From Mycolicibacterium monacense (GTDB lineage: Bacteria; Actinomycetota; Actinomycetes; Mycobacteriales; Mycobacteriaceae): DNA of 64,000 nucleotides. Below, one piece after another: positions 27,894 to 44,700 of this stretch. The position numbers were made by a program, and so were the translations under genes. The stretch is from contig NZ_AP022617.1 in assembly GCF_010731575.1 (NCBI RefSeq), positions 1,116,001-1,180,000 on the forward strand, read 5' to 3'. The notes below the pieces were generated by a model that did not search any database, was not told where the DNA came from, and was given only the letters and a program-made list of their open reading frames with translations. The first letter of the stretch is position 1; each line of letters opens with the position of its first letter.

Positions 27894-28597
27894 GACTGGT
27901 GCAGCCCGCATTCGATCTTGTTCAGGCCCTGCCAGCGCCCGCTGCGCGGATCGGCGCCCTCGATCGGCTTGGCCGTGCACGGTGCGCAACCGATCGACGG
28001 GTAACCCTCGTCGACCAGCGGGTTGACCAGCACGCCGTTGGCGGCGATGTAGGCCTGCATGTCGTCGTCCGACCATGCCGCGATCGGGTTGATCTTGACC
28101 AGGCCGAACGCCCTGTCCCAGCTGATCAGCGGTGCGTTGGCCCGGGTGGGGGCCTCGACGCGGCGGATGCCGGTGACCCAGGCCGAATAACCGCTCAGCG
28201 CCTTGGTCAGCGGTTCGACCTTGCGCAGACGGCAGCACTCGTTCGGCTCGCGGGCGAACAGGTCCTTGCCGAGCAGCGCCTCCTGTTCGGCGACGGTCCG
28301 CTCGGGGGTGACGTTGACGACGTTCACGTCGTACACCGCCTGCACCGCATCGCGGGTGCCGATGGTCTCCGCGAAGTGGTAGCCGGTGTCGAGGAACAGC
28401 ACGTCCACACCGGGCCGGACCTTCGCCGCCATGTCGACCAGCACCGCGTCCTGCATGTTCGACGCCACCACGTAGTTGCCGGAGAAGTTCTCGTCGGTCC
28501 AGCGCAGCAGGTCGATCGCCGACGCGTTCGGGCCGAGTTCGGCCGCGCCGCGCTCCGCCAGTTGCTGCAGGTCGATATCCGACATCACATCCGTCAC
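27890..28597 (-). CDS. cysH: Adenylylsulfate (APS) reductase CysH
   Basis: The 235-residue enzyme reduces APS to sulfite with thioredoxin. It has the phosphoadenosine phosphosulfate reductase fold (VLFLDTGYHFAETIGTRD) and the cysteine pairs NECCRLRKVEPL and IGCAPCT that hold the 4Fe-4S cluster, marking it as an APS rather than PAPS reductase. The catalytic cysteine is in the C-terminal KIECGLHQS. The GTG start overlaps the sirA stop (GTGA), so it is the second gene in the sirA-cysH-chelatase operon. Confidence 0.95.
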   Translation of the reverse strand: MTDVMSDIDLQQLAERGAAELGPNASAIDLLRWTDENFSGNYVVASNMQDAVLVDMAAKVRPGVDVLFLDTGYHFAETIGTRDAVQAVYDVNVVNVTPERTVAEQEALLGKDLFAREPNECCRLRKVEPLTKALSGYSAWVTGIRRVEAPTRANAPLISWDRAFGLVKINPIAAWSDDDMQAYIAANGVLVNPLVDEGYPSIGCAPCTAKPIEGADPRSGRWQGLNKIECGLHQS

Positions 28598-30276
28598 CGC
28601 AAGTCCGCCTCGTCTGCTCGTAGGGCCCACGTTGCGAAACGCTCGCCGTCCTCGCGTTGTTTCACGAAGTTGCGAACCACCCGCTCGATGTAGTCGCCGA
28701 GTTCGGTCGCGAGCACCTTGTGCTGGCGCAGCTTGCGGCCGAAACCGCTGTCCAGCCCGAGGCTGCCGCCCAGGTGGACCTGGAAGCCCTCTTCGGGGCC
28801 GTCCCCGTCGTCCACCATCTGGCCCTTGAACCCGATGTCGGCGACCTGGATACGGGCGCACGAGTTCGGGCAGCCGTTGATGTTGATCGTCACCGGCACG
28901 TCGAGCTGGGCGTTGATGTCCTCGAGGCGCTTCTCGAGCTCGGGCACCAGCACCTGCGAGCGGCTCCTGGTCTCGGCGAAGCTGAGCTTGCAGAACTCGA
29001 TTCCCGTGCACGCCATCAGGTTTCGCCGCCAGTGCGACGGGGTCGACGGCAGGCCCAACGCGTCCAGCCCGGCCCGCAGCTCGTCGAGCTTCTCATCGGG
29101 CACGTCCAGCACGATCAGCTTCTGGTACGGCGTGAACCGGATCCGGTCGCTGCCCGCGGCCTCGGCCAGGTCGGCGACCTTGCTCAAGATGGTCCCCGAG
29201 ACGCGGCCGGCGATGGGGGCGACGCCGACGGCGTTGAGACCGTTCTTGAGCTTCTGCACCCCCACGTGGTCGATCGGACGGGTCACGGGGTCGGGCGCGG
29301 GTCCATCGATGAGCGGGCGCTTGAGGTACTCCGTCTCGAGAACCTGGCGGAATTTCTCTACGCCCCAGTCCTTGATCAGGAACTTCAGCCGGGCCTTGGA
29401 GCGCAGGCGCCGGTATCCGTAGTCGCGGAAGACGCTGACGACGCCCTCCCAGACGTCGGGCACCTCATCGAGCGGAACCCAGGCCCCGACGCGCTGGCCC
29501 AGCATCGGGTTGGTGGACAGCCCGCCGCCGACCCACAGGTCGAAGCCGGGGCCGTGCTCGGGATGCACCACACCGATGAACGCGACGTCGTTGACCTCGT
29601 GCACGACGTCCTGCAGACCGGAGATCGCGGTCTTGAACTTGCGCGGCAGGTTGGAGTACTCCGGCTTGCCGATGTAGCGCTTGACGATCTCGTCGACCGC
29701 GGGCGTGCCGTCGATCACCTCGTCGAGGGACTCACCGGCCAGCGGCGAACCGAGCACGACGCGGGGGCAGTCGCCGCACGCCTCTGTGGTCTGCAACCCC
29801 ACCTCGTCGAGCCGGCGCCAGATCTCCGGCATGTTCCTGACGTCGATCCAGTGGTACTGGACGTTCTGCCGGTCGGAGATGTCGGCGGTGTCCCTGGCGA
29901 ACTCGGTGGAGATCTCACCGAGGGTGCGCAGCGCCTTCGCGGTCAGCGCACCGCCGTCGCTGCGGACCCGCAGCATGAAGTACTCGTCTTCGAGCATGTC
30001 GGTGTTCTCGTCACCGGTCCACGTGCCGTCGAAGCCGGGCTTGCGTTGGGTGTAGAGGCCCCACCAGCGGAAGCGGCCGCGCAGGTCGCCCTTGTCGATC
30101 GTGTCGAAGCCGCCGGGGGCGTAGATGTTCTCGATCCGCTCCCGCACGTTGAGCGGGTTGTCGTCCTTCTTGGACTGTTCGTTGGCGTTGAGCGGCTCGC
30201 GGTATCCCAGTGCCCACTGTCCTTCGCCGCGCGGACGCTTCACGGGCTTGGCGGGGCGGGTCGGGGTCTCGGTCAT
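28594..30276 (-). CDS. sirA: Ferredoxin-dependent sulfite reductase (SirA/NirA)
   Basis: The 560-residue enzyme reduces sulfite to sulfide using siroheme and a 4Fe-4S cluster. The cluster cysteines are in ACTGIEFCKLSFAETR (C-x5-C) and NGCPNSCARIQ (C-x3-C); the two ferredoxin-like half domains and FTPYQKLIVLDVPDE are also seen. It was once called NirA in mycobacteria but acts on sulfite. The ATG follows AAGGAG, which lies in the 3' arm of a hairpin (30284-30301), and a cysteine-run ORF lies upstream; together these suggest cysteine-responsive control. Confidence 0.95.
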   Translation of the reverse strand: MTETPTRPAKPVKRPRGEGQWALGYREPLNANEQSKKDDNPLNVRERIENIYAPGGFDTIDKGDLRGRFRWWGLYTQRKPGFDGTWTGDENTDMLEDEYFMLRVRSDGGALTAKALRTLGEISTEFARDTADISDRQNVQYHWIDVRNMPEIWRRLDEVGLQTTEACGDCPRVVLGSPLAGESLDEVIDGTPAVDEIVKRYIGKPEYSNLPRKFKTAISGLQDVVHEVNDVAFIGVVHPEHGPGFDLWVGGGLSTNPMLGQRVGAWVPLDEVPDVWEGVVSVFRDYGYRRLRSKARLKFLIKDWGVEKFRQVLETEYLKRPLIDGPAPDPVTRPIDHVGVQKLKNGLNAVGVAPIAGRVSGTILSKVADLAEAAGSDRIRFTPYQKLIVLDVPDEKLDELRAGLDALGLPSTPSHWRRNLMACTGIEFCKLSFAETRSRSQVLVPELEKRLEDINAQLDVPVTININGCPNSCARIQVADIGFKGQMVDDGDGPEEGFQVHLGGSLGLDSGFGRKLRQHKVLATELGDYIERVVRNFVKQREDGERFATWALRADEADLR

Positions 30277-30454: not shown

Positions 30455-30633
30455 CACCAGCGAGATGCGGGTGTTGAGGGCCGGCGCGGCAGTCACCCGG
30501 CCATTGTGCCACGAACTGCCGCACCTGCCCTAACCGGGCCATATTTGCGCTCGCGGTGAGCAAAAGTCGCCCCAGGCCCCGCGGATCGGCCGCGGGATTA
30601 CGCCATCTGACGTCGCGCTGGGACGATGGAGAG

Positions 30634-31812
30634 GTGAGCCTCCGAACCGCCCCCGTACGCGCGCCGGAACTGGCCGCCACCGCGGGTCGGCCGTTCGGCC
30701 TCTACATCCACGTCCCGTTCTGCGCGACCCGCTGCGGCTACTGCGACTTCAACACCTACACCCCCGCGGAGGCGGGCGGCGCCAACCCCGAGGGCTGGCT
30801 GGTCGCGATGCGCCAAGAGTTGGCGCTCGCGGCCCGGACGTTGGGGACGCCGCCGCCGGTGCGGACCGTCTTCGTCGGCGGTGGCACCCCGTCGCTGCTG
30901 GGCGGTGCGGGCCTGACCGCGGTGCTGGCCGCGGTGCGCGAGCACTTCGAACTGGCGCCCGGCGCCGAGGTCACCACTGAGGCCAACCCGGAGTCGTCGG
31001 GACCCGAACTGTTCGACGCGCTGCTGGCCGCCGGCTACACCCGCGTCTCGCTCGGTATGCAGTCGACGGCCCGCCATGTCCTCAAGGTGCTCGACCGGTT
31101 GCATTCCCCCGGCCGCGCGGTGGCCGCCGCCGGAGAGGCGCGCGCAGCCGGCTTCGGGCACGTCAACCTCGACCTGATCTACGGCACGCCGGGGGAGACT
31201 GACGACGACCTGCGCCGGTCCGCCGACGCCGCGATCGGGGCGGGGGTCGACCACGTGTCGGCCTACGCGCTGGTGGTCGAGGACGGGACGGCCCTGGCCC
31301 GCCGGGTGCGGCGCGGTGAGGTGACCGCCCCCGACGACGACGTGCTGGCGGCGCGGTACGAACTGCTCGATGCGCGGCTGGGCGAGGCCGGGTTCGACTG
31401 GTACGAGGTGTCGAACTGGGCCAGGTTCGGCGGCGAGTGCCGCCACAACCTCGGCTACTGGGCCGGCGGCGAATGGTGGGGGGTCGGGCCGGGGGCGCAC
31501 GGCTTCCTGGGCGACACCCGGTGGTGGAACGTCAGGCATCCCAACGCCTATGCCACCGCGCTGGGCGACGGGGCACTGCCCGTCTCCGATTTCGAGGTGC
31601 TCGACCCGGCCGCGCGGCACACCGAGGACGTGATGCTGCGGGTGCGGCTGCGCAGCGGGCTGCCGCTGGACATGCTCACCGCCGACGAGCGGAGTCGCGT
31701 CGGCACCGTGGTGGCCGACGGCCTCGCGGTGGTCGACGGGGCGGCGCTGGTCCTCACCGACCGTGGCCGCCTGCTCGCCGACGGTGTGGTGCGCACGCTG
31801 CTCGCCGACTGA
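30634..31812 (+). CDS. hemW: Radical SAM heme chaperone HemW
   Basis: The 392-residue protein has the radical SAM motif CATRCGYCDF (CxxxCxxC, about residues 30-37) after YIHVPFC, then GGGTPSLL, TEANPESSGPELFDALLAAG and the HemW region ECRHNLGYWAGGEWWGVGPGA. Close homologues were long called HemN, but this length and the HNxxYW motif mark HemW, a heme-transfer chaperone. GTG at 30634 gives the mycobacterial N-terminus SLRTAPV; the frame is open further upstream. It precedes the PKS by 54 bases on the same strand. Confidence 0.92.
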   Translation: MSLRTAPVRAPELAATAGRPFGLYIHVPFCATRCGYCDFNTYTPAEAGGANPEGWLVAMRQELALAARTLGTPPPVRTVFVGGGTPSLLGGAGLTAVLAAVREHFELAPGAEVTTEANPESSGPELFDALLAAGYTRVSLGMQSTARHVLKVLDRLHSPGRAVAAAGEARAAGFGHVNLDLIYGTPGETDDDLRRSADAAIGAGVDHVSAYALVVEDGTALARRVRRGEVTAPDDDVLAARYELLDARLGEAGFDWYEVSNWARFGGECRHNLGYWAGGEWWGVGPGAHGFLGDTRWWNVRHPNAYATALGDGALPVSDFEVLDPAARHTEDVMLRVRLRSGLPLDMLTADERSRVGTVVADGLAVVDGAALVLTDRGRLLADGVVRTLLAD

Positions 31813-31866
31813 ATCCGACCGGAGGTGGTCGCCCCGGATCGGCGCGGCTGTGCCATCATTGCCCGC

Positions 31867-34800
31867 ATGTCGAGGGACTTAGGCAAGGCTAACCAATTGG
31901 CACCCGGCCTCCCCGAACCCGTCGCGATCGTCGGCATCGGCTGCCGGCTGGCCGGCGACATCGCGACCCCCGCGGACTTCTGGACGTTCCTGCTAGACGG
32001 GGGCAGTCGCGTGCGCGAGGTGCCCGCGGACCGCTGGGAGCCCTATCTGCGGCGCGACCCCCGCAACGCCGCGGTGCTGCGCGAGACGACGCCGTGGGGC
32101 ACCTTCCTCGACGACCTGGCCGGTTTCGACGCCGAATTCTTCGGTGTCTCACCGCGTGAAGCCGAACTGATGGATCCGCAGCAGCGACTGGCGCTCGAAG
32201 TCTCCTGGGAGGCACTCGAACACGCCGGGATTCCGCCGCGCTCGCTGGCCGGCAGCGACACCGCGGTGCTGATGGGCGTGAACTCCGACGACTACGGCAA
32301 GCTCATCATGGAGGACCTGCCGGGGATCGAGGCGTGGACCGGGATCGGCACGTCGCTGTGCGGTATCGCCAACCGCGTCTCGCACCTGCTCGATCTGCGC
32401 GGCCCCAGCGTCGCACTCGATGCGGCGTGCGCGGCCTCGCTGGTGGCCGTGCACCAGGCGTGCCAACTGCTGCGGACGGGGGAGACGTCGCTGGCGCTCG
32501 CCGGCGGTGTCAGCGCACTGATCGGGCCCGGTCTGACCCGGGTCCTCGACCAGGCGGGGGCGACCGCGCCCGACGGCCGGTGCAAGAGCTTCGACGCCGA
32601 CGCCGACGGCTACGGCCGCGGTGAGGGCGCCGCGGTCGTGGTGCTCAAGCGGTTGGCCGACGCCGTGCGGGACGGTGACCGGGTGATCGCCGTCGTCCGC
32701 GGTGGGGCGGTGGCCCAGGACGGACGCACGGTCGGCATCATGTCGCCCAACGGCGCCGCCCAGGAGGACCTGTTTCGGCGCACCTGTGCGACCTCCGGAA
32801 TCGACCCGGCGACAGTCGGATTCGTCGAGGCGCACGGGACCGGCACGCCGACCGGCGATCCGGTCGAACTCGACGCGCTCGCCGCCGTGTACGGGGCGCG
32901 GCGGGCCGACGGTGAACCGTGCCGCGTCGGATCGGTCAAACCCAACACCGGTCACCTCGAGGGCGGGGCCGGGGTGGTGGGGTTGATCAAGGCGGCGATG
33001 GCGCTGCAGCACGAGGCGATCCCCCCGACCGCCGGTGTCCGCACACTCACCCCGGCCGTGGACTGGGCGTCGAATGGACTGCGGGTTCCGACCCGGGTCG
33101 AGGCGTGGCCGCGTCGCGACGATGTCGCGCGCCGGGCCGCGGTGTGCAGCTACGGCTACGGCGGCACCATCGCCCATGTCCTGCTGGAAGAGGCGCCGGT
33201 CGCCGTACGCCCGGAGGCGGAGACGGACGCCGAACCCGTGGCCGTCCCGCTGTCGGGGCGGTCGTCCGCGCGCCTGATCCGCCACGCCGCCGCTCTCGCC
33301 GATCACCTTCGGCGGCGACCACATTCGGTGGGAGAGGTGGCCGCGACCCTGTGGGCGCGGCGCTCCCACGAACCGGTGCGCGCCGCGGTGATCGCACACG
33401 ACGGCGCCGACCTGGTGACCGGGCTCGACGCGCTCGCCGACGACCGCCCGACACCGTCGGTTCTCACCGGCAACGTACTCGCGGGTGCGGCCGACGGTGC
33501 GGTGTGGGTGTTCTCCGGACACGGATCGCACTGGCCCGGCATGGGTCGCGAACTGCTCTCGCACGAACCGGCTTTCGCGACGGTCATCGACGCGGTGGAA
33601 CCGGTGTTCGCCGACGAACTCGGGTTCTCGGCGCGTGCCGCGCTGCACAGCGGTGACCTCGGCGGAACCGATCGCGTGCAGGCGCTGACGTTCGCGATGC
33701 AGGTCGGCCTGGCCGCGGTGCTGCGCGAGCGCGGTCTGCATCCGGCCGCGGTGATCGGCCACTCCGTCGGTGAGGTGGCCGCCAACGTGGTCGCCGGTGT
33801 CTTCGACCTCGCCCACGGGGCCGCGGTGGCCTGCTACCGCGCACGGGGCTTCCGATCGGTGGCCGGCGCGGGGGCGATGGCCCTGGTCCGTCTTCCCTTC
33901 GCCGAGGCCGACCGGCGCCTGGGCGACCGCACCGATGTGGTGGCGGCGATCAGCGCCTCACCGGAGTCGACGGTCATCTCGGGCACCGTCGAAGCGGTCG
34001 AGGAGGTGTCGGCGCGCTGGACCGACGAGGGGATGACGGTGCGCCGGGTGAACACCGACGTGGCGTTCCACAGCCCGGCGATGGACGGATTGACCGCCGA
34101 ACTCGCCCGTCTCACAGCAGGTCTGGCGCCGACGAAGTCCGCCGGCGTGCCGCTGTACTCCACCGCGCTGCCCGACCCCCGGTCGACCGCACCACGCGAC
34201 CCCGGCTACTGGGTGGCCAACCTGCGTGGCCGGGTGCGCTTCGCCGAAGCCGTGACCGCCGCGGCCGAGGACGGACACCGGCTGTTCCTCGAGGTGTCGG
34301 CGCATCCGGTGGTCGCGCACTCCATCGCGGAGACGCTGGCGCACCACGCGATCGACGACCACGCGGTCGTGCCGGTGCTGCGGCGCGAACAGCCCGAGCT
34401 GCCTGCCGTCGCCGCCGCCGTCGGAGCGCTGTACTGCCACGGCGCACCGGTCGCGCACCGGGTCGAGACCGAAAAACCCTGGGCCGCAGATCTTCCCGGA
34501 ACGCAGTGGGTGCACCGGCGACACTGGCGCACGCCCGCCGCGCCCCCTGGCGGTCGCGGTGTGCACGAGCCGGATTCGCACACCCTGCTCGGCGGCCCGA
34601 TGGAGGTGACCGGGGCGGTGCCCGCACGGGTGTGGCAGACACGGCTGGACTTGTCGACGCGGCCCTACCCGGGCGACCACCCGGTGCAGGGCACCGAGAT
34701 CGTGCCCGCCGCCGTCCTGCTGAACACGTTCCTCGCCGCCGCCGGAACGGATCTGGCCGACGTGCGGTTGCGCACACCCGTGCCGCCGGGACGCGCGCGC

Positions 34801-36981
34801 GACATCCAGGTGGTGTCGCAGGACCGCTCGCTGGCCCTGGCGTCCCGGGTGGTCGACGACGGCGAGGACGCCGACGGTGGCTGGTTGACCCACTGCACCG
34901 CGCTGGCCGCGCCGGGTGGGGAACCCGCGCTGACCGTGCTCGACGAGGACGAGATCCGCGCGCGGTGTCCGGAGGTGTTGCCGTCGACTCATGTCGTGGA
35001 CACGTTGGAGACCCTCGGCGTGGCCGCGATGGGATTCGGTTGGCAGGTGCTCGACCTGCACCGCGGTGACGGTGAGCTCTTCGCGCGTGTCGCGGCCGAT
35101 GTCGACGGATCGACGCCGGCGACGTGGGCGGGACTGCTCGACGCCGCGACCTCGGCGGCCTCGACGATCTTCGACGGTCCGCCGCGACTGCGCATGCCCG
35201 CCCGGATCGAACGGGTGCACGTCCACGACAAACCACCTGCCGTCGCGCTGCTGCACGTACGCCGCCGCGATGCGGGCACCGTCACCGACGTGGTACTCGC
35301 CGAGGAGTCCGGTGCGGTCTCGGTGTCCTTGACCGGCATGGCATTCGAGGAGCTCGAGAATCCCAGCGGCCGCGACACGGCGCGGCTGTTGCACCACGTC
35401 GCGTGGCAACCGGTCGCATGGCCGGACGCCGACCTGCCTGCCGAGGTGGTGCTCGTCGGCGGGGACGCCGCTACGCGGGCCTTCGTCACCCGCGACCTCG
35501 ACGAGGCCGGTGTGCCGCACCGATCTGTCGGTCACGCAACGGAACTCGGCGCGCTCCCGAGCGGGTCGGTGGTGCTCGTGCTGCCGCGCGCCGACGAGAC
35601 ACCGCAGACGTCGGCCGAACTCGTGCTCAGCACGGTGCAGCATCTCGACGCGTCCGGTGCTCGAACCAGGTTGTGGGTGCTGACCTCCGACGTGCACGAA
35701 GGCGTCAACCCGGCGCACGCCCCGCTGTGGGGAATGGCGCGGGTGGCGGCGGCCGAACATCCACACCTGTGGGGCGGCGTGCTCGACATCACCGGGGACC
35801 GGTTGCCGGTGCGGGCGCTCGGCGCGCTGCACGGGCACGGTGTGGTGGTGGTGCGCGACGGCGTCGCGTACGCGGCGCGGTTGGCCCACGCCGGACCGGG
35901 GGAGGCGGCGCCGCTGCAGTGCTCGCCGGGCGGTACCTACCTGATCACCGGCGGCACCGGCGTGCTGGGGCTGCGGCTGGCGCAGCGCCTGGCCGACCTG
36001 GGGGCGCGGCGTCTGGTGCTGGTGTCGCGGTCTGGCATTCCCGAGCGCAGCGCATGGCGCGACCACAGCGACCGGGAAGTGGTCGCCGTGGTCTCCGCCC
36101 TCGAACAGCGGGGGGTGTCGGTGAAGGTGGCGGCCGTCGACGTCGGCGCACCCGGAGCGGCCACCGCGCTGCGGTCGGCGCTGGTCGACCTGCCGCCGGT
36201 GCGCGGAGTCATTCACGCCGCGGGCGTGGAAGCCGGTGCGCTGCTGGCCACGACGACCGCGGACGATCTCGACGCGGCGATGCGGCCGAAGGTCGCCGGG
36301 CTCAACACGCTGCACGAGCTGTTCCCGCCCGGCGAGCTGGATTGGATGGTGCTGTTCTCGTCGTGCGGCTATCTGGCGGGCTTCCCCGGCCAGGGTGCCT
36401 ACGCCTGCGGCAACGCCTACCTCGACGCCTTCGCCCGCCACCGCCGCCGCCTCGGCGACCGGACCACCAGCGTCGCGTGGACGGCGTGGCGGGGTATGGG
36501 CATGGGCTCGGCCTCCGGATTCGTCGCCGCCCAGCTCGACGCGCTCGGGATGGGCACGGTGGGACTCGACGACGCGATGCGGGCGCTGGACTCGGCGATG
36601 CGCGACGACGACCCCAACGTGGTGGTGTTGCCGGTGCTGCCGTCGGCGGCATCGGTGCCGATCCTCGCCGACGTCGCGCCCACCGAATCCGCGGAGCCGG
36701 TCGCGGACCGCGGTGACGAGGACGTCGCGGAGTGGGCGGCTCGCCAGGTGCTCACCGCGGTCTCCTCCGAACTCGGTTGCGCCGCAGATGATGTCGACCT
36801 ACGGCTGCCGTTGGTGGAGATCGGTGTCGACTCCATCATGACCGTCGCCCTGCGGCGCCGGCTGGAGAAGCAGACCGGGCTGTCGCTGCCGCCGACTCTG
36901 CTGTGGGAGTACCCGACCGCCGCGGCGGTGACCGACCGAATCACCGAACTGCTGATGGCCGAGGACTCTTCAGCCGCGTAA
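31867..36981 (+). CDS. Iterative type I polyketide synthase, 6-methylsalicylic acid synthase type
   Basis: The roughly 1704-residue protein has the domain order KS-AT-TH/DH-KR-ACP of 6-methylsalicylic acid synthases and the usual length of that class. KS: DAACAASLVAVH (Cys near 186), EAHGTGTPTGDP, NTGHLEGGAG. AT: GHSVGEVAAN (Ser near 632) with the FH motif of malonyl-specific domains in VAFHSPAMD. TH/DH: GDHPVQGTEIVPAAVLLNTF (His near 937) and WAGLLDAATSAASTIF, both close to the thioester-hydrolase domain of MSAS. KR: LITGGTGVLGLRLAQRLADL. ACP: EIGVDSIMTVALRRR (Ser near 1654). It should build an aromatic C8 acid from acetate and malonate units and release it as free acid. An IdeR box lies at its 5' end and mbtA-H downstream. 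TTG at 31897 is an alternative start. Confidence 0.85.
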   Translation: MSRDLGKANQLAPGLPEPVAIVGIGCRLAGDIATPADFWTFLLDGGSRVREVPADRWEPYLRRDPRNAAVLRETTPWGTFLDDLAGFDAEFFGVSPREAELMDPQQRLALEVSWEALEHAGIPPRSLAGSDTAVLMGVNSDDYGKLIMEDLPGIEAWTGIGTSLCGIANRVSHLLDLRGPSVALDAACAASLVAVHQACQLLRTGETSLALAGGVSALIGPGLTRVLDQAGATAPDGRCKSFDADADGYGRGEGAAVVVLKRLADAVRDGDRVIAVVRGGAVAQDGRTVGIMSPNGAAQEDLFRRTCATSGIDPATVGFVEAHGTGTPTGDPVELDALAAVYGARRADGEPCRVGSVKPNTGHLEGGAGVVGLIKAAMALQHEAIPPTAGVRTLTPAVDWASNGLRVPTRVEAWPRRDDVARRAAVCSYGYGGTIAHVLLEEAPVAVRPEAETDAEPVAVPLSGRSSARLIRHAAALADHLRRRPHSVGEVAATLWARRSHEPVRAAVIAHDGADLVTGLDALADDRPTPSVLTGNVLAGAADGAVWVFSGHGSHWPGMGRELLSHEPAFATVIDAVEPVFADELGFSARAALHSGDLGGTDRVQALTFAMQVGLAAVLRERGLHPAAVIGHSVGEVAANVVAGVFDLAHGAAVACYRARGFRSVAGAGAMALVRLPFAEADRRLGDRTDVVAAISASPESTVISGTVEAVEEVSARWTDEGMTVRRVNTDVAFHSPAMDGLTAELARLTAGLAPTKSAGVPLYSTALPDPRSTAPRDPGYWVANLRGRVRFAEAVTAAAEDGHRLFLEVSAHPVVAHSIAETLAHHAIDDHAVVPVLRREQPELPAVAAAVGALYCHGAPVAHRVETEKPWAADLPGTQWVHRRHWRTPAAPPGGRGVHEPDSHTLLGGPMEVTGAVPARVWQTRLDLSTRPYPGDHPVQGTEIVPAAVLLNTFLAAAGTDLADVRLRTPVPPGRARDIQVVSQDRSLALASRVVDDGEDADGGWLTHCTALAAPGGEPALTVLDEDEIRARCPEVLPSTHVVDTLETLGVAAMGFGWQVLDLHRGDGELFARVAADVDGSTPATWAGLLDAATSAASTIFDGPPRLRMPARIERVHVHDKPPAVALLHVRRRDAGTVTDVVLAEESGAVSVSLTGMAFEELENPSGRDTARLLHHVAWQPVAWPDADLPAEVVLVGGDAATRAFVTRDLDEAGVPHRSVGHATELGALPSGSVVLVLPRADETPQTSAELVLSTVQHLDASGARTRLWVLTSDVHEGVNPAHAPLWGMARVAAAEHPHLWGGVLDITGDRLPVRALGALHGHGVVVVRDGVAYAARLAHAGPGEAAPLQCSPGGTYLITGGTGVLGLRLAQRLADLGARRLVLVSRSGIPERSAWRDHSDREVVAVVSALEQRGVSVKVAAVDVGAPGAATALRSALVDLPPVRGVIHAAGVEAGALLATTTADDLDAAMRPKVAGLNTLHELFPPGELDWMVLFSSCGYLAGFPGQGAYACGNAYLDAFARHRRRLGDRTTSVAWTAWRGMGMGSASGFVAAQLDALGMGTVGLDDAMRALDSAMRDDDPNVVVLPVLPSAASVPILADVAPTESAEPVADRGDEDVAEWAARQVLTAVSSELGCAADDVDLRLPLVEIGVDSIMTVALRRRLEKQTGLSLPPTLLWEYPTAAAVTDRITELLMAEDSSAA
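31878..31896. promoter_or_regulatory. IdeR iron box at the 5' end of the PKS gene
   Basis: TTAGGCAAGGCTAACCAAT matches 15 of 19 positions of the mycobacterial IdeR consensus TTAGGTTAGSCTAACCTAA, including the complete core TTAGG and GGCTAACC. It lies 11 bases inside the frame that begins at ATG 31867. If the transcript starts at that ATG (CATCAT seven bases upstream is a weak -10), the box would cover +12 to +30; otherwise translation starts at TTG 31897 just after the box. Confidence 0.75.
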
Positions 36982-37251
36982 TAAGCAGGGTTGTTCGTCC
37001 GGGTTCGGGTGGCCACTCGTTATGGCGGCCCACAGATCCACGGAAGGACAACCTGCAGGCGTCAATCGAAGTGAGCGTCAAAGCGACGCCGCACCACGCT
37101 GTCTGTCGGAATCGCATTAACTTTCAGAGGATTTCAGTTCGGCTAAACGTATGGCTGTGGTGGTGTTCCCTTGAGTCAGCGGCTGTGCAGCAAGGGCCTC
37201 ACCCGTCGCGATGTCATGCGGTGCGGGTGCGGTGGCGACGATCTGCGGCGC
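36982..37251. other. Intergenic stretch between PKS and HNH gene
   Basis: A 270-base gap with no credible ORF, terminator or operator that I can identify; base composition is less GC-rich than the flanks between about 37080 and 37160. It lies between the convergent 3' ends of the PKS and the HNH endonuclease gene. Confidence 0.5.
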
Positions 37252-38895
37252 TCAAGCCGCCCGATTTTGCGGGGGTGCGGGGCCGCCGGGTTCACCGGCG
37301 CTGTCGGCGGATCGGATCGGCGAGCCCGGCTCCACGGGCCGCGTCTCGTTGACGTCGGCTGGTGAAGTGGTGGCATCTTCCGCGCAGGGAGCCTGGCGGG
37401 TTTCGCCGGCCACCGGTGCAGCGGTCTTCGCGGGGCGGGTCTCGTCTGCCTCCCCGGCCGCGCGGTTGTTCGGCTCGGTGTCGCCAATGTTTTTAGTGTC
37501 AGCCGGTTCCGCCGATGCGCCGGGCAGGTCGGGATCGCCGGGCGGGGTGAGGAGGCGTTCGGGCCGGTGGTGGTAGTTGATGCGGGCCTGGCCGGTGTCC
37601 AGTTGTGGTGGCGGGATCCATTCGACTTCGTGTTGGTCGTTCATGCGGGTGGTCCAGCCGTCGTTGGTGCCGACGCTGCGGTTGTCGGGTCCGCACGCGA
37701 GCCCGAGTTCATCGACGTTGGTGTTGCCGCCGTCGATCCAGTCGGCGTCGACGTGGTGGGCTTGGCAGCCGTAGGCACCGATGGTGCAGCCGGGTTTGGT
37801 GCAGCCACCATCGCGGGCGATGAGCATGATGCGCTGGGCCGGGGAAGCGATCCTTTTTGTGCGGAACAGATTTAGCGCCGATCCGGTCGCGCGGTCGAAT
37901 ACCGCCAGGTAGTGGTTGGCATGCCCGGCCATCCGGATCACATCTTTGATGGGGATGACGGTGCCGCCGCCGGTGGTGCCCACCCCGGCACGCGACTCCA
38001 AATCCTGCAGGGTCGTGCGGACGATGATTGAGACCGGTAGTCCGTTGAGCTGTCCGAGGTCACCGCTCATCAACGCGATGCGCCCGATCGCGAGCATCGC
38101 GTCGTGTTGGCGCTGGGCCAGGCTGCGGTAATCGTTGTCGATCTGGGCCTGTGACGGTGTCCCGGAGGTGCAGGGCTCAGGATCGTCGGGATTGCACATC
38201 CCCGGGGCGGCGTACTTGGCGAAGAGCACCTCCCACACCGCCCACGCCTCCGGGGTCATCGTCGCACGCAGATCCACCATTCCATCAGGGCGCTGTTTGT
38301 ACTTGGTGACCCCGCGTTTGCGGGCGCGTTCGGTGTCATCGGGTTCGGGACCGTCCTGGTCGAGCAGAAACAGCGTGAGGTCCGCGGCCTCTTTGAGTTC
38401 CTTGGGACCCACCCCGGCCGCGGTGCGCACCAGGGTGATCTCGAACTGCTCCCGGGTGGCGGTATCCACCCATGCGGGCAGTTTGTCGACCGCTTTACGG
38501 ATGACCTCCACGTGTTCACCGGTGACGCACCCGAGCGATTGGGCTGCCGCGGTGGCCGGTAGCAGTGGTGGCAGCGACGGACCGGTCATCGCCTGGCGCG
38601 GCGCCAACAGGCTGGCCTCGGTGAGGCGTCGGTGGGCTTCGCTGCCTGAGATCCGCCACCGGACCGTGAGCACCTCTTTCCAGGATTTGGCGCCCAACTG
38701 CTGCGGGGTGGACTCGGCTTGCAGGCGCGCCAGCAGGCGATGGTTCATCGTGGGTAGCTGACACCCCAGGGTTTCGAGGTCGTCGAGGGCGGCCAGCAGG
38801 TTGGGCTGATCCAGGAGGTCGACATCACAGGCGGCCACCGCGTCGAAGGCGGCACGCAGCGCCGTCACCGCGTCCTGGAGTTCGTTGCCCAACAT
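37252..38895 (-). CDS. 13E12-family HNH endonuclease (DUF222)
   Basis: The 547-residue protein has an N-terminal DUF222 domain (residues about 5-330; HRLLARLQAESTPQQLGAKS, HRRLTEASLLAPRQ) and a C-terminal HNH nuclease motif: CTKPGCTIGAYGCQAHHVDA, then NTNVDELGLACGPDNRS, with paired cysteines for zinc and the His-Asn catalytic set (about residues 390-435). The last 110 residues are a low-complexity Pro/Ala/Glu tail. Members form the 13E12 repeat family scattered in mycobacterial genomes, sometimes LexA-controlled. ATG 38895 with a TATGTT -10 six bases away suggests a leaderless transcript; ATG 38910 is the alternative. It sits where mbtI/mbtJ would be expected. Confidence 0.88.
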   Translation of the reverse strand: MLGNELQDAVTALRAAFDAVAACDVDLLDQPNLLAALDDLETLGCQLPTMNHRLLARLQAESTPQQLGAKSWKEVLTVRWRISGSEAHRRLTEASLLAPRQAMTGPSLPPLLPATAAAQSLGCVTGEHVEVIRKAVDKLPAWVDTATREQFEITLVRTAAGVGPKELKEAADLTLFLLDQDGPEPDDTERARKRGVTKYKQRPDGMVDLRATMTPEAWAVWEVLFAKYAAPGMCNPDDPEPCTSGTPSQAQIDNDYRSLAQRQHDAMLAIGRIALMSGDLGQLNGLPVSIIVRTTLQDLESRAGVGTTGGGTVIPIKDVIRMAGHANHYLAVFDRATGSALNLFRTKRIASPAQRIMLIARDGGCTKPGCTIGAYGCQAHHVDADWIDGGNTNVDELGLACGPDNRSVGTNDGWTTRMNDQHEVEWIPPPQLDTGQARINYHHRPERLLTPPGDPDLPGASAEPADTKNIGDTEPNNRAAGEADETRPAKTAAPVAGETRQAPCAEDATTSPADVNETRPVEPGSPIRSADSAGEPGGPAPPQNRAA

Positions 38896-38898
38896 ACG

Positions 38899-38914
38899 TC
38901 GAACATACATTCGA
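38899..38914. promoter_or_regulatory. LexA SOS box over the HNH gene promoter
   Basis: TCGAACATACATTCGA matches the mycobacterial SOS box TCGAAC-N4-GTTCGA at 11 of 12 fixed positions. On the minus strand it overlaps the TATGTT -10 element and lies 4 bases upstream of the ATG, so LexA binding would block transcription. Confidence 0.7.
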
Positions 38915-39256
38915 CCACGGACAAACCGAGATGTGCTGGTCAGCGGCAGGTGGTGTCACGATTCCGGCTACCGGATGCGTCTTGTGGGTGTACCGGGACG
39001 CGCTCCGACGCGGTGGACGAGATTCTCATCCTCGGAGCCGGCATCGCGGCAACCCTGGGCCTCGTGAACCAATAAAGCGGTACGACACCGCCGAGGACAC
39101 CATTGCGGACATCGCGGAGAGCATCACCGTAGGTGCTCGCCTTCCTGGCCGAGCGGGATCGGCAATGCGCCGACGTTGCATCACCCCTCTGTGTCAGACC
39201 GATGGGCCAGACTTCGGCGCATGGGCAAGAGCAACCGCCCCGGGCGATGCTCGTTG

Positions 39257-39279
39257 CCGGACGCCGCCACGGCGTCCGG
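39257..39279. repeat. Perfect inverted repeat (stem-loop)
   Basis: CCGGACGCCG (39257-39266) and CGGCGTCCGG (39270-39279) form a 10-base perfect stem with a CCA loop. No T-run follows, and no intact gene ends here, so it may be a leftover terminator of a lost gene. Confidence 0.5.
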
Positions 39280-39285
39280 GGACAA

Positions 39286-39594
39286 ATGCGTACCAAGGCG
39301 TTCAGGCTGCCCTTCCTCGTCGCCTACGGAGCTCGCATCGGTGAGCGGCTCGCCGCCGCCAGTTCGTCGGCCACCGCCGAAATGCAGGGCGACGAACGGC
39401 TGCTGCCCGTGTTGGCGGCCCGCAACCGCGCCGCGGACGAGGCTTTCGCCCGCCTGTTTCCGACGGCTGTCGGAACCCCGCTGGTCGCCTAAGACTCCGT
39501 CGGCACGGACGCCGGTCGCGCGGCGGCGGACACGGCCGTGCTGGACGTCCGCGACGCGATCGCGAGTTGGGTGCCAGCGAAATCTAATGGTTGA
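39286..39594 (+). pseudogene. Remnant of a DUF2786-like protein gene with in-frame stop
   Basis: Residues MRTKAFRLPFLVAYGARIGE followed by RLLPVLAARNRAADEAFARL look like the C-terminal half of DUF2786-type proteins. The frame stops at TAA (39490-39492), but reading through it continues with DAGRAAADTAVLDVRDAIAS, which also fits the end of that family. So this is a 5'-truncated gene with a premature stop. The upstream frame (39133-39285) has no matching sequence. The family match is from memory and is moderate. Confidence 0.5.
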
Positions 39595-39777
39595 GGTGAT
39601 GACGTCCCACGAACCGAATGCCATCCTCGGGGAATGGCGCGCACTTGGCTGACCGCCGTCACAGATTCAGGCGTCGACCACCGAGTTCTTCACCCCTGAT
39701 CATGAGCGGAGCCCCGGCCGGCATCCCGTTCCAGCCCCTGCGCGCGCGTCCACGTGACGCATCGTGCCGACACGACA

Positions 39778-39906
39778 TCAGCCGTCGACGTGCACAGGTG
39801 GTTCGGCGAAATTCGGATCCGCTGGCGGCCAGGTGCCGTCGGGCTGGACGGGTCCGTCGCATCTGCCGAGAGTGGGGCCTCTGTACAGGCAGCCGGCGGC
39901 GGCCAT
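39778..39906 (-). pseudogene. Remnant of a CDGP-type mycobacterial secreted protein
   Basis: A 42-codon frame contains GCLYRGPTLGRCDGPVQPDG then TWPPADPNFAEPPVHVDG. The CDGP motif and an ending in HVDG/HIDG are found in small mycobacterial secreted proteins, but the signal peptide and the middle section with further cysteines are missing. I read it as a deleted remnant rather than a working gene. Confidence 0.4.
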
Positions 39907-39985
39907 CCTGCCGTCATGAATCTCGTTGCGGCTGCCGGAGAACCGAACCTCCCGGGTGGCACCGCCCTGCTGCGCTACGAGGCTC

Positions 39986-41635
39986 TCACCCGCTCAGCTG
40001 CTCGACGAGCTTCTTCTTGTCGACCTTGCCGACCGCGGTCAGCGGCAGCGACGGCATCGCAGCCAGCACGTCGGGCCGGGCGTGAGTGGACGCCCCGCGT
40101 TCGTCGAGGAATGCGTTGAGTTCGGCGAGCGTGAGCTGCTTGCCGCGGAACACCACTGCGGCGCAGATCTTCTCACCGAGATAGTCGTCGGGTAGCGCGA
40201 CGGCGGCCGCCGCATAGATCGCGGGGTGGGTCAGCAGATGGTCCTCGAGGTCGGTCGCCGAAACCGTCTCACCGCCGCGGTGGATGACGTCCTTGATCCG
40301 GCCGGTCACCTCGACGTTGCCGGCCAGCGGGCCGTCGGCGAAGATCCGCACCCGGTCCCCGGTGCGGTAGAAGCCGTCCGGGCTGAAGCACCGGGCGTTG
40401 GCCTCGTCGGCCCGGTAGTACCCGTTGAGTGTGTTGGGACCGCGCACCAGCAGTTCGCCCTCTTCGCCCGGTGCGACCTCGACACCGGACTCGTCGACCA
40501 CCCGCATCTCGTCGTGCGGGGAGACCGGCCTGCCCTGGGTGTGCACCACGACGTCGAGCGGATCTCCCGGCCGCGTGAAATTCAGCATGCCCTCGGCCAT
40601 TCCGAAGATCTGGGACAGCCCGGGGGTCAGGAGATCGAGGATGAACCGCGCCTCCTCCGGGCTCATCCGCGAACCGCCCACCTGCACCAGGCGCAGCGAC
40701 GTCGGCAGCACCGGTTCCCAGTCGCACGCCTGCGCCCACAGCTTGCCCAGCGCGTTGACCAGCCCGGTGACGGTCACCTGGTGTTTGTCGATGAGCGCGA
40801 ACGCCTCCTCCGGGCTGGGATCGGCGGTGAACACCGTCGTCGCCCCCACGGTCATTGCCCCCAGCATGCCGGGGCACGCCAACGGGAAGTTGTGGCCGGC
40901 CGGCAACGCCACCAGGTAGACGTCGTCGGGGGTGAAGTGGCACGCCTGCGCGCTCGACACCGCGGTGTAGACGTAGTCGTCGTGGGTGCGGGGGATCAGC
41001 TTGGGCAGTCCGGTCGTTCCGCCGGAGACCAGCAGCAGGGCAGGCAGCGAGGTGTCGACGGGTCCGATCTCCGGTGCCACGCCGCCGCTGTCGATCAGTG
41101 CCGCCCACGATAGGAACGGTCCCGGGTCACCGTCGACGAGCACGTGCCGCAGCGTGGGCCGGTCCGCCACCAACTGGGCGGCCATCTCGCGGTAGTCGAA
41201 GCCGCCGACCTCGTCGGGCACGATCAGCGCCACCGCGCCGCTGACGTCGGCGAAGTGTCCCAGCTCGGCGGTGCGGTGGCCGGGCAGGCACATCACCGGC
41301 ACCGCGCCCGCCCGCAGCAGACCGAAGAACGCGACGGCGAAACGCACGGAGTTGGGTAGTTGCAGCAGCACCCGGTCACCAGGACGGATCCCGAGTCCGG
41401 CCAGCGCCGCGGCGACGGTGTCGGCGCGCGCGGTCAGCTCCGCGAACGTGAGGGATCCGTCGACGTCGACGACGGCCGGGTGATCGGGCCGTCGGTGTGC
41501 CGCGTCGAGGAGAAGGGACTCGAGGGGCCGCCCGGTCCAGTACCCGGCCCGCCGGTACTGCTCGGCGCGGTCTTCGGGGAATGGGACGAAGCCATCGGTC
41601 AGGTCGCTGTGCACATGCTGGAATCCGGTGCTCAT
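39986..41635 (-). CDS. mbtA: Aryl acid adenylating enzyme MbtA
   Basis: The 549-residue enzyme activates an aryl acid as acyl-AMP and loads it on the aryl carrier domain of MbtB. Motifs: LLLVSGGTTGLPKLIPRTHD (A3), ALPAGHNFPLACPGMLGA (aryl-binding loop, as in DhbE/EntE), FGMAEGMLNFTR (A5), YRTGDRVRIF (A7) and the final GKVDKKKL (A10 lysine). It is a stand-alone A domain without carrier. The known substrate in M. tuberculosis is salicylate; here 6-methylsalicylate from the PKS is a likely alternative. It is divergent from mbtB across tandem IdeR boxes. Confidence 0.93.
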   Translation of the reverse strand: MSTGFQHVHSDLTDGFVPFPEDRAEQYRRAGYWTGRPLESLLLDAAHRRPDHPAVVDVDGSLTFAELTARADTVAAALAGLGIRPGDRVLLQLPNSVRFAVAFFGLLRAGAVPVMCLPGHRTAELGHFADVSGAVALIVPDEVGGFDYREMAAQLVADRPTLRHVLVDGDPGPFLSWAALIDSGGVAPEIGPVDTSLPALLLVSGGTTGLPKLIPRTHDDYVYTAVSSAQACHFTPDDVYLVALPAGHNFPLACPGMLGAMTVGATTVFTADPSPEEAFALIDKHQVTVTGLVNALGKLWAQACDWEPVLPTSLRLVQVGGSRMSPEEARFILDLLTPGLSQIFGMAEGMLNFTRPGDPLDVVVHTQGRPVSPHDEMRVVDESGVEVAPGEEGELLVRGPNTLNGYYRADEANARCFSPDGFYRTGDRVRIFADGPLAGNVEVTGRIKDVIHRGGETVSATDLEDHLLTHPAIYAAAAVALPDDYLGEKICAAVVFRGKQLTLAELNAFLDERGASTHARPDVLAAMPSLPLTAVGKVDKKKLVEQLSG

Positions 41636-41733: not shown

Positions 41734-44700
41734 GTGGAGGCCGTTGTGACCAGTTCGCAGACTGTACGGGCCGAGGTTGCCGAACTTCTGGGAATCGAGG
41801 AGTCCGCACTCGATCCGGATGCCGACCTGATCGCCTCGGGCCTGGACTCCATCCGCATGATGTCGCTGTCGGGACGCTGGCGGAAACAGGGCATCGACGT
41901 GCGGTTCGCGGCGATGGCGGCGAACCCCACCGTGGCCGCCTGGACCCGGCTCGTCGGTGAACGCACCGCGGAAAGCCCCGGTGCGGCAACGCAATCGGGT
42001 GACACTGCGGCGAGCGCCGGAGATCCCGACGCGCCGTTCCCGCTGGCGCCGATCCAGCACGCGCTGTGGGTGGGCCGCAACGAGCTCACCGAACTCGGCG
42101 GCGTGGCCGCCCACCTCTACGTCGAATTCGACGGTGCGGGGGTGGATCCCGAGCGCCTCCGTACCGCGGCCGCCGCGCTCGCCGCGCGCCACCCCATGCT
42201 GCGCGTCGACATCCTCGGCGACGGCATGCAGCGCATCAGCGACCGCGATCTGCCCGTCAAGGTGACCGACCTTCGACACCTCGACGTCGCCGACGCCGAA
42301 CAACAGCTCGAGGTCATCCGCCACGCCAAATCACACCAACTGCTCGAGGGCGAGGTGCTGGAGCTGGCACTGACCCTGTTGCCCGACGGGCGCACCCGTC
42401 TGCACGTCGACCTCGACATGCAGGCCGCCGACGCCGTGAGCTACCGCAATTTCATGGCCGACCTCGCCGCGCTCTACCGCGGCGCGCAGCTGCCCGAGTT
42501 GCAGTACACCTATCGCCAATACCGCAGCGCGTTCACCGCCACGCCCGCGCCGACCGTCGACGAGGACCGCCGGTGGTGGACCGAGCGCATCCCGGATCTC
42601 CCCGAACCGCCCGCGCTGCCGCTGGTTCCGCGTGCCGAACAGCGTGACCCGCGCCGCGGCACCCGACGCTGGCACTTCCTCGACACCGACATCCGTGACC
42701 GGCTCTTCGCCGCCGCCCGCGCGCGCGGCATCACACCGGCGATGGCGTTCGCCGCGAGCTACGCCGGCACGCTCGCCCGGTGGTCGACCAGCCGCCACTT
42801 CCTGCTCAACCTGCCGATGTTCGGCCGCGAGCCGTTCCACCCGGACGTCGACAAACTCGTCGGCGACTTCACCTCGTCACTGATGCTCGACGTCGACTTC
42901 ACCGAGGCGCACACCCCGGCGCAGCGGGCGCGGGTGATGCAGGAGGCGCTGCACACCTCCGCGGAACACGCGACCTACTCGGGTCTGTCGGTGCTGCGCG
43001 ATCTGAGCCGCCATCACGGTTCGCCCTCGCTGGCGCCGTTCGTGTTCACCAGCGCGCTCGGCCTGGGCGATCTGTTCGCCGGTGACGTCACCGACCAGTT
43101 CGGCACCCCGGTCTGGCACATCTCCCAGGGCCCGCAGGTGCTGCTCGACGCGCAGGTGACGCCGTTCGACGGGGGACTGCTGGTCAACTGGGACGTCCGC
43201 GAGGACGCGTTCCGGCCCGGCGTCATCGACGCGATGTTCGCCTACCAACTCGCCGAACTCGAACGGCTCGCCGCCGACGACGCGGCCTGGGACGCCGCCG
43301 ATCCGCCCGCGGTGCCACCCGCGCAACGCGCGGTCCGCGACGCGGTGAACGACACCGGCGCCCGGCGCAGCGACGACGCGCTGCACGACGGGTTCTTCCG
43401 CACCGCCGCACACACACCCGACGCCACCGCGGTGATCGGCTCGACCGGCACCCTCACCTATGCCGAACTGCGCGAACGGGTGCTGGCGGTCACCGGTGCG
43501 CTTCAGGTGGCGGGCATCAAGCCGGGGGACACCGTCGCGGTGATGGGCCCCAAGTGCGCCGATCAGGTCACCGCGCTGCTGGCCATCCACGCCGCAGGCG
43601 CGGTGTACGTACCGATCGGCGCCGATCAACCCGCCGACCGTGCGGACAGCATCCTGCAGACCGCAGGCGTGCGGATGGCGCTGGCGTGCGGGGACGAACC
43701 CCCGACCTTCCTGCCCGCACTGACCATCGCCGAGGCGGTCCGGGTCGGATCGCGGGTGCACGATGTCACCCCCGCCACGGTCGAGCCCGACCGGGTCGCC
43801 TACGTGCTGTTCACGTCCGGCTCCACCGGCGCCCCCAAGGGCGTCGAGGTCACCCACGCCGCGGCGATGAACACCCTCGAATTCATCAACGACCACTTCG
43901 GGATCGGGCCTTCCGACCGGAGCCTCGCGTTGTCCACGCTCGAAGGTGATCTGTCCGTACTCGACGTCTTCGGGATGCTGCGCGCCGGCGGGTCACTGGT
44001 TGTCGTGGACGAAGCGCAGCGCCGCGACCCCGACAGCTGGGCACGGTTGATCGCCGAGCACTCGGTGACGGTGTTGCACTGGATGCCCGGCTGGCTTGAG
44101 ATGCTGCTCGAGGTGGGCGGTGCGCTGCCGTCGGTGCGGGTGGTGCCCACCGGCGGCGACTGGGTGCGCACCGAGATGGTTCGCGAACTGCGCAGGGCCG
44201 CAACGGGTGTGCGGTTCGCCGGCCTCGGCGGCGCGACGGAGACCGCGATCCACAACACCATCTGCGAACCCGGTGAGCTGCCGCGGGAGTGGTCCGCCGT
44301 CCCGTTCGGCCGTCCGCTGCCCAACAACGCCTGCCGTGTCGTCGCCGCCGACGGTGCCGACTGCCCGGACTGGGTGCCCGGAGAACTGTGGGTCGGCGGA
44401 CGCGGCATCGCCCGCGGGTACCGGGGTAGGCCCGACCTGACCGCCGAACGGTTCGTCGTCCACGACGGCCGGACCTGGTACCGCACCGGCGATCTCGTCC
44501 GTTACCTGCCCGACGGTCAGATCGACTTCGTCGGTCGCGCCGACCACCGCGTCAAGATCAGCGGATACCGCATCGAACTCGGCGAGGTGGAGGCTGCACT
44601 GCGCCGCATCGCCGTCGTCGAGGCCGCCGTGGCCGCGGTGCTGACGGCCCCCGGTGACGGCCGCGGCGAGCAGCTGGCCGCCATCGTGCGGGCATCGTCG

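What the first reader, a model, noticed from the sequence alone, without database searches (positions are those of the whole stretch)
31867..41635. A 6-methylsalicylate-type PKS appears to replace the salicylate synthase MbtI in a mycobactin locus
Seen: a KS-AT-TH/DH-KR-ACP protein of about 1704 residues with MSAS-like TH motifs (GTEIVPAAVLLNTF, LDAATSAASTIF), a 15/19 IdeR box at its 5' end, and mbtA-mbtH downstream. No mbtI or mbtJ is present beside mbtA. Known: mycobactins from some species (for example mycobactin P of M. phlei) were described with a 6-methylsalicyl cap, and MSAS enzymes release the free acid, which is what MbtA needs. Inference: this organism makes a 6-methylsalicyl mycobactin, and the iron regulon has taken over a polyketide route to the cap in place of the chorismate route. 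A direct genetic basis for that chemotype at the mbt locus would be valuable.
Basis: partly seen in the sequence, partly recalled or inferred. Interest (0 to 1): 0.9.

Follow-up and report, generated by a model that had tools for sequence, protein, structure and literature searches.

The report
Polyketide synthase replaces mycobactin salicylate synthase
Many mycobacteria appear to start their iron-scavenging molecule mycobactin with a ring built by a polyketide synthase (probably 6-methylsalicylate) instead of the usual salicylate, and the gene for it sits in the siderophore cluster where the usual salicylate gene would be.

Summary
Confirmed and extended. ORF 31867-36981 (+) encodes a complete KS-AT-TH/DH-KR-ACP iterative PKS of the 6-methylsalicylate synthase (MSAS) type. 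It lies between hemN/hemW and mbtA, the place and orientation mbtI has in relatives. The complete own genome has no MbtI. Of 148 genus genomes 119 carry mbtA: all 119 have MbtI (67), this PKS (45, two broken) or both (7, one decayed); none of the 29 without mbtA has either. On an rpoB tree the trade-off recurs in 6-7 of 9 independent pairs and is never reversed. MbtA splits into two clades that match the starter gene exactly (70 against 43 rows), with one fixed difference (Asn294/Pro294). An IdeR-like box precedes the PKS in 56 of 57 loci of the window's layout. M. fortuitum-complex genomes keep mbtI directly upstream of the PKS. The 6-methylsalicyl cap is inferred; no product was measured. 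The methylated mycobactin chemotype is old (recalled, not read); I found no genetic account of it in the open-access searches made. Verdict: new variant of a known kind, probably the genetic basis of 6-methylsalicyl mycobactins.

The parts
31867..36981 (+). MSAS-type iterative PKS (KS-AT-TH/DH-KR-ACP), 1704 aa; proposed maker of 6-methylsalicylate for the mycobactin cap
31879..31897 (+). IdeR-like iron box TTAGGCAAGGCTAACCAAT, 16/19 to TWAGGTWAGSCTWACCTWA; lies just inside the ATG of a predicted leaderless transcript
31849..31859 (+). TGTGCCATCAT, conserved motif 7 nt before the ATG, read here as an extended -10 element (inference; the sigma-70 consensus scan found no site)
30556..31812 (+). 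hemN/hemW-like gene immediately upstream, same strand; syntenic anchor
28594..30276 (-). nirA/sirA-like reductase (best curated models are nitrite/sulfite reductases, below cut-off); syntenic anchor
37252..38910 (-). DUF222 protein gene between the PKS and mbtA; found in only some relatives
39986..41635 (-). mbtA, aryl-acid AMP ligase of the PKS-linked clade (Asn294, Ile343, Met350)
41740..45237 (+). mbtB-like NRPS (carrier, condensation, adenylation); start approximate
45036..45971 (+). thioesterase, possibly mbtT (name recalled); start approximate
45851..47299 (+). mbtC-like ketosynthase
47296..50232 (+). mbtD (NF037940 over cut-off)
50228..55462 (+). mbtE-like NRPS; start approximate
55432..59841 (+). 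mbtF-like NRPS
59751..61130 (+). mbtG-like lysine/ornithine monooxygenase; start approximate
61108..61323 (+). mbtH

Best explanation
Under iron limitation IdeR releases the PKS and mbt promoters. The PKS iteratively condenses one acetyl and three malonyl units, its KR reduces once, the chain cyclises and aromatises, and the TH/DH domain releases free 6-methylsalicylic acid. The cognate MbtA adenylates that acid and loads it on MbtB, so the mycobactin carries a 6-methylsalicyl cap. The PKS thus does the job of MbtI by another chemistry. Shown here: gene anatomy, intact catalytic residues, position, absence of MbtI, genus-wide trade-off, iron box, MbtA clade. Inferred: regulation by IdeR, exact product, release mechanism (from characterised MSAS enzymes, recalled), use by MbtA, and the final siderophore.
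For: Complete MSAS-type architecture; 12 catalytic positions intact and invariant among the rows that cover them (67 or 68 of 68 mycobacterial rows, 12 or 13 of 13 others). KS clade with other actinobacterial MSAS-type PKSs, including one from the polyketomycin producer Tue6028, against 10 other PKS rows. No MbtI in the genome and no isochorismate-lyase model passed. 119 of 119 mbtA-bearing genomes have MbtI or the PKS, 0 of 29 without mbtA have either. Independent-pairs test 6-7 against 0, with 2-3 ties. PKS and mbtA start within 12 kb of each other in 48 of 52 genomes (G014 18 kb; 3 on different contigs), in two layouts. Iron box with at most 5 mismatches in 56 of 57 loci of the window's layout, against a minimum of 6 in 2373 control windows. 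MbtA tree: one change of starter type, support 100; Asn294 70/70 rows against Pro294 43/43. Precedent: cahuitamycin C uses an unlinked 6-MSAS, and deletion of the MbtI homologue leaves only the 6-methylsalicyl product (PMC4757757, passages read).
Against: No metabolite data. 7 of 148 genomes have both genes, so replacement is not universal, and in 3 of 52 PKS genomes the gene is broken. The MbtA differences mark a single split on the MbtA tree, so they count as one event; the concentration of differing positions in 244-360 was noticed before it was tested and fails at a stricter conservation threshold (p 0.077). The salicylate-AMP ligase of PDB 5wm2 (taken to be CahJ by recall) keeps Pro at the site equivalent to 294, so Asn is not needed to use 6-methylsalicylate if that is CahJ. 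2 of 67 loci with long flanks (L046, L047) show no mbtA within about 8 kb. In 7 of 49 full-length genus matches the aligned stretch holds a stop codon, not examined. The protein passes none of the 25 NCBIfam models shown.
Confidence: 0.88

Rival explanations
1. The PKS supplies the mycobactin cap, but the acid is a different aromatic polyketide (for example orsellinate or a methyl-naphthoate).
For: Orsellinate and naphthoate synthases are close relatives of MSAS (PMC2636887 passages; PMC4256081 passages); my KS tree holds no product-proven orsellinate or naphthoate synthase and cannot separate products.
Against: The KR active-site residues are intact in 68 of 68 mycobacterial rows, whereas orsellinate needs no reduction (PMC2636887 passages). 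One relative in the same KS clade lies in the strain that makes polyketomycin, whose building block is 6-methylsalicylate. A naphthoyl cap is not a mycobactin I know of (recall).
Confidence: 0.06
2. The PKS makes a lipid or another metabolite unrelated to mycobactin; salicylate comes from another route or from outside.
For: Mycobacteria can use exogenous salicylate for mycobactin (PMC9505556 passages); an isochorismate synthase is present.
Against: Linked to mbtA in two layouts, iron box, exact genus-wide partition with mbtA, MSAS clade apart from other PKSs, no isochorismate-lyase model passed.
Confidence: 0.04
3. The organism makes mixed salicyl and 6-methylsalicyl mycobactins, with salicylate from an unrecognised enzyme.
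For: Genomes with both genes exist, and cahuitamycins are such a mixture.
Against: Neither MbtI nor an isochorismate lyase over its model cut-off was found in this genome.
Confidence: 0.02

Closest known systems
Mycobactin locus with MbtI (M. tuberculosis type)
   Same: MbtA-MbtH assembly line; mbtI and mbtA convergent where I saw both in one stretch, and in one MbtI-only genome (L144) hemN adjoins mbtI
   Different: starter made by a 1704-aa iterative PKS instead of by MbtI from chorismate; MbtA of another clade; the PKS is closely tied to mbtA (48 of 52 within 12 kb) while mbtI is within 5 kb of mbtA in 22 of 67 and within 20 kb in 53 of 67
Cahuitamycin pathway of Streptomyces gandocaensis (CahI, CahJ, cah MSAS)
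   Same: aryl-capped siderophore NRPS fed by a bacterial 6-MSAS through a salicylate-AMP ligase (PMC4757757, passages)
   Different: there the MSAS gene is unlinked and an MbtI homologue is also present; here it is inside the locus and mbtI is gone
Bacterial 6-MSAS of antibiotics (ChlB1 of chlorothricin; the polyketomycin enzyme of Tue6028)
   Same: for the Tue6028 enzyme: KS clade and TH/DH and KR residues; ChlB1 is a single 186-kDa protein making 6MSA (PMC12125101 passages; its sequence was not compared)
   Different: those acids enter antibiotics; the mycobacterial enzymes form their own clade (support 100) with an iron box or behind mbtA
6-Methylsalicyl mycobactins (mycobactin P of M. phlei and others)
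   Same: the proposed product chemotype
   Different: structures known from old chemistry (recalled, not read); no gene assigned in the papers I could search

Membership tests
Bacterial 6-methylsalicylate synthase (MSAS) | single-protein KS-AT-DH/TH-KR-ACP architecture of about 1700 aa | tested here: met
   (one of the two DH models just under its cut-off)
Bacterial 6-methylsalicylate synthase (MSAS) | intact catalytic residues incl. TH/DH His952 and Asp1106 and the KR Ser-Tyr-Asn | tested here: met
   68 of 68 mycobacterial and 13 of 13 other rows at these sites (roles of the residues recalled)
Bacterial 6-methylsalicylate synthase (MSAS) | phylogenetic grouping with MSAS-type PKSs, apart from lipid PKSs | tested here: met
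   SH-aLRT 99.7 on a quick tree of 41 chosen rows, long branches flagged; no fungal MSAS or sequence with proven product could be added
Bacterial 6-methylsalicylate synthase (MSAS) | makes and releases free 6-methylsalicylic acid | not testable with these tools
   needs enzyme assay or mass spectrometry
Salicylate synthase MbtI (TIGR03494) | chorismate-binding protein over the curated cut-off in the genome | tested here: not met
Mycobactin biosynthesis locus | MbtA plus MbtB-MbtH type genes together | tested here: met
   (MbtD and MbtH by model over cut-off, the rest by domains and order)
IdeR-regulated gene | iron box in the promoter region | tested here: met
IdeR-regulated gene | iron-dependent expression or IdeR binding | not testable with these tools
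   none
Mycobacterial lipid PKS (Pks2/Pks13) | passes the curated model | tested here: not met
   904.7 bits against a cut-off of 2400 and 777.4 against 2100

The most novel reading that the evidence does not exclude
Mycobactin loci of the genus come in two interchangeable types, MbtI with its MbtA clade and MSAS with its own MbtA clade. The MSAS-mbtA pair arose once and has since been swapped between species as a unit, so siderophore chemotype switches by locus exchange. The M. fortuitum complex, with both genes in tandem, would make both caps.
Probability: 0.65. Interest if true: 0.85.

Novelty: new variant of a known kind. Interest (0 to 1): 0.78.

Why it matters
It gives a gene-level explanation, testable by one deletion and one mass spectrum, for a chemotype difference among mycobactins known for decades (recalled), and turns it into a genome-predictable trait. 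It shows a non-homologous enzyme taking over the first step of a conserved siderophore pathway, with a distinct clade of the activating enzyme alongside. It implies that inhibitors of MbtI would not touch mycobactin synthesis in about three in ten sampled genomes (45 of 148 have the PKS and no MbtI, two of the 45 with a broken PKS).

Tried and rejected
Considered and rejected: lipid PKS (KS tree; curated models not passed); mbtI elsewhere in the genome; salicylate by a PchB-like lyase (the two CM_2 proteins pass chorismate-mutase models, not lyase ones). The IdeR box as chance (0 matches at that level in 100 shuffles; control windows), or as only a conserved leader peptide: it is out of frame with the ATG in 4 of the 44 loci that matched the leaderless-ATG pattern (L095, L103, L106, L120), and its TTA codon is 7 of 1733 leucine codons in my rough gene calls of the window.

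Led nowhere: no paper found that gives the gene behind methylated mycobactins (searches; open-access PMC only; judged from listings, and from passages of the papers named). Three papers hold both mycobactin and methylsalicyl; I read passages of two, not of PMC6262359. In one search, 20 of 41 papers were listed, none of the 20 with the word mycobactin; the other 21 were not seen. Snow's review was not held. M. phlei, M. thermoresistibile, M. aurum and M. fortuitum themselves are not among the 80 named loci (two short peptide patterns, 80 of 97 kept), so the chemotype-genotype test in the classical species could not be made. A plasmid search gave 4 weak hits.

Limits: genomes whose PKS match was not listed individually (the list is cut at weaker matches) were counted as lacking the orthologue. 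The Fisher p ignores relatedness; the independent-pairs test is the corrected one and rests on one gene and SH-aLRT support. The MbtA contrast is one event. The fragment L182 was dropped. 108 of the 119 mbtA-bearing genomes are in the rpoB tree; G002 and G144 (no mbtA) were fetched and dropped. The TH alignment used for the named scan holds 13 of the 20 PKS loci first fetched. The KS tree holds 16 chosen mycobacterial PKSs and 1 of the roughly 40%-identity class.
Full report
WHAT IS THERE. The finding's ORF is real. Frame 31825-36981 (+) is open for 1718 codons, and the ATG at 31867 gives 1704 residues. Pfam places KS, AT, a TH/DH region (PKS_DH_N over, PS-DH just under its cut-off), KR and ACP in order. 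Twelve catalytic positions of KS, AT, TH/DH, KR and ACP are intact here and invariant among the rows that cover them: 67 or 68 of 68 mycobacterial rows and 12 or 13 of 13 others. Downstream lie a DUF222 gene, mbtA on the other strand, and MbtB, thioesterase, MbtC, MbtD, MbtE, MbtF, MbtG and MbtH-like genes. Upstream, on the same strand, is a hemN/hemW-like gene, and beyond it a nirA/sirA-like gene.

NO MBTI. The window is part of a single 6.04-Mb contig, 100% complete. Three chorismate-binding proteins occur, and each passes a model of its own kind: anthranilate synthase, aminodeoxychorismate synthase and isochorismate synthase. None passes the salicylate synthase model. Two CM_2 proteins pass chorismate-mutase models; the lyase and CM-like models stay far below cut-off.

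TRADE-OFF ACROSS THE GENUS. In the same 148 genomes I searched the PKS, MbtI and MbtA. I counted an orthologue of the PKS at 60% identity or more: 52 of 148 (49 as one full-length match, 3 broken: G034, G020, G076). The next listed matches are at 47% or less; matches weaker than the cut list were not seen. MbtI passes the cut-off in 74 of 148. Both: 7; PKS only: 45; MbtI only: 67; neither: 29. MbtA occurs in 119 of 148, and by script these are exactly the 119 with PKS or MbtI. So each genome with the activating enzyme has at least one candidate maker of an aryl acid, and no genome without it has either. On an rpoB tree of 108 of these 119 genomes the PKS needs at least 13 changes and MbtI at least 11. 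Of 9 independent pairs on well-supported branches that differ in the PKS, the member with the PKS lacks MbtI in 6-7, the reverse holds in 0, and MbtI does not differ in 2-3 (sign test p 0.016-0.031). One MbtI-only genome (G042) branches with the window's genome and G095.

LINKAGE. PKS and mbtA start within 12 kb of each other in 48 of 52 genomes, 18 kb apart in G014 and on different contigs in 3. mbtI is within 5 kb of mbtA in 22 of 67 MbtI-only genomes, within 20 kb in 53, and on another contig in 10, so mbtI is often not directly beside mbtA.

LOCUS ANATOMY IN NAMED SPECIES. A scan with the TH-domain alignment gave 97 loci, of which 80 were kept: 67 from Mycobacteriaceae and 13 from Actinophytocola, Streptomyces, Amycolatopsis and Rhizohabitans. 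mbtA lies within the fetched stretch in 59 of 67 (6 of the other 8 are cut by a contig end; L046 and L047 are not), hemN in 58 of 67, and mbtI in 10 of 67, in each of these 10 between hemN and the PKS. Those ten include M. septicum, three M. peregrinum, M. porcinum, M. senegalense and M. setense. None of the 13 others shows mbtA, mbtI or hemN in its stretch at the thresholds used. There are two layouts: the window's, hemN -> PKS -> <- mbtA (57 loci, counted as all that are not tandem; not every one shows all genes), and mbtB <- -> mbtA -> PKS (10 loci, for example M. neoaurum, M. triplex, Mycolicibacter). In the MbtI-only stretches that hold both genes mbtI and mbtA are convergent (a set chosen partly because the genes were close), and in L144 the end of hemN adjoins mbtI, so the PKS occupies the place and orientation of mbtI. 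In G110 and G031 mbtI survives beside hemN while PKS and mbtA lie elsewhere. Of 20 named genomes searched whole, 6 have MbtI (M. septicum, M. peregrinum, M. triplex, M. porcinum, M. senegalense, M. setense) and 14 do not. Of 251 family-level genomes (own genus included) 12 outside the genus match the TH alignment, 2 of them strongly (E below 1e-50).

MBTA. MbtA rows split into two clades that match the starter gene exactly: 70 rows from PKS loci against 43 from MbtI-only loci (42 of 67 such genomes), one change, support 100. Position 294 is Asn in 70/70 and Pro in 43/43; 343 is Ile 69/70 against Val 43/43; 350 is Met 69/70 against Leu 43/43. Of positions conserved at 85% in both groups, 7 of 68 differ in the 244-360 stretch around the acid-binding region, and 3 of 179 elsewhere (Fisher p 0.005); at 95% it is 3 of 52 against 1 of 125 (p 0.077). 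The stretch was chosen after seeing the positions, so this is suggestive only. By alignment with solved homologues and the recalled adenylation-domain code, 294, 343 and 350 lie at or next to acyl-pocket positions. Because the two MbtA types split once, this is one event, not 113. Read with the rpoB result, it suggests that PKS and mbtA have moved together between species.

IRON CONTROL. A published consensus is TWAGGTWAGSCTWACCTWA (PMC9505556 passages). The window has three sites with 3 mismatches, 0.00 expected: one at the PKS start and two at 62893-62936. In the 150 nt before the KS domain, 56 of 57 loci of the window's layout have a site with 3-5 mismatches; the exception, L058, lacks the 5' end of the PKS, so it could not be judged. 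The 10 tandem loci (7-10 mismatches) and the 13 non-mycobacterial loci (7-10) have none, and 2373 control windows inside the PKS have a minimum of 6. In the 10 tandem loci a site with 4-5 mismatches lies in the 430 nt around the mbtA start (no size-matched control).

WHAT THE PKS IS. In a quick KS tree of 41 rows the 31 MSAS-type rows form one side of a branch (99.7) against 10 other PKS rows, nine from the own genome and one from a relative; the 16 mycobacterial ones are one clade (100). The program flagged long branches among the other rows. Among the relatives is the enzyme of Streptomyces sp. Tue6028, the polyketomycin strain (PMC5318452, start of abstract in a listing), next to a second ketosynthase gene and a deoxysugar gene. 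6-methylsalicylate is a building block of polyketomycin, and ChlB1 makes it from one acetyl- and three malonyl-CoA (PMC12125101 passages). Orsellinate and naphthoate synthases are near relatives, so the product is inferred and not read from the sequence.

PRECEDENT AND NOVELTY. In Streptomyces gandocaensis deletion of the MbtI homologue CahI leaves only cahuitamycin C, and an unlinked MSAS is the proposed source of its 6-methylsalicylate (PMC4757757 passages). [quoted passage not shown] whether they are these genes I could not tell. That mycobactins of some species are 6-methylsalicylated is recalled from older chemistry. Ten full-text searches of the open-access library, judged mostly from listings, showed no paper linking an MSAS gene to mycobactin; subscription journals are not covered, so this is not proof of novelty. 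Enzyme family and siderophore family are both known; the combination inside the mbt locus and its genus-wide alternation with MbtI are what appears new.

On re-reading the calls I corrected wording on linkage, added the stricter MbtA threshold, the broken copies, the unseen parts of lists and the KS-tree warnings.

Noticed in passing
window 31849-31910; upstream of the PKS in L044-L108, L120, L121: Conserved leaderless-type start (TGTGCCAnnAT, about 7 nt, ATG) whose first codons overlap the iron box. In 30 of 44 loci matching the pattern it opens a 17-32 codon ORF that stops at or near the PKS start (possible translational coupling); in 14 of 44, the window included, it is fused in frame to the PKS. 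24 of 68 rows did not match the pattern.
   Followed up: partly
window 62893-62936: Two adjacent IdeR-like sites (3 mismatches each) upstream of a 476-aa minus-strand ORF (61408-62838) without a Pfam match.
   Followed up: no
L182, L183 (genome G076): A 99% complete genome in which the PKS, mbtA and mbtI all look broken: a decayed mycobactin locus.
   Followed up: no
L176-L179 (G110, G031) and M. triplex (L071, G381): In G110 and G031 mbtI stands at its hemN-linked place without mbtA while mbtB/mbtA/PKS sit elsewhere; M. triplex also has mbtI outside its PKS locus. Looks like an acquired second-type cluster with the old starter gene left behind.
   Followed up: partly
genus sample, 29 of 148 genomes: Genomes without mbtA, PKS or MbtI, among them several of 5.7-6.5 Mb that are at least 99% complete; probably no mycobactin made.
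   Followed up: no
G292 (L192) and G262 (L193): MSAS-type PKSs in another genus of the same family, without a clear mbtA or hemN match in the 18 kb fetched.
   Followed up: no
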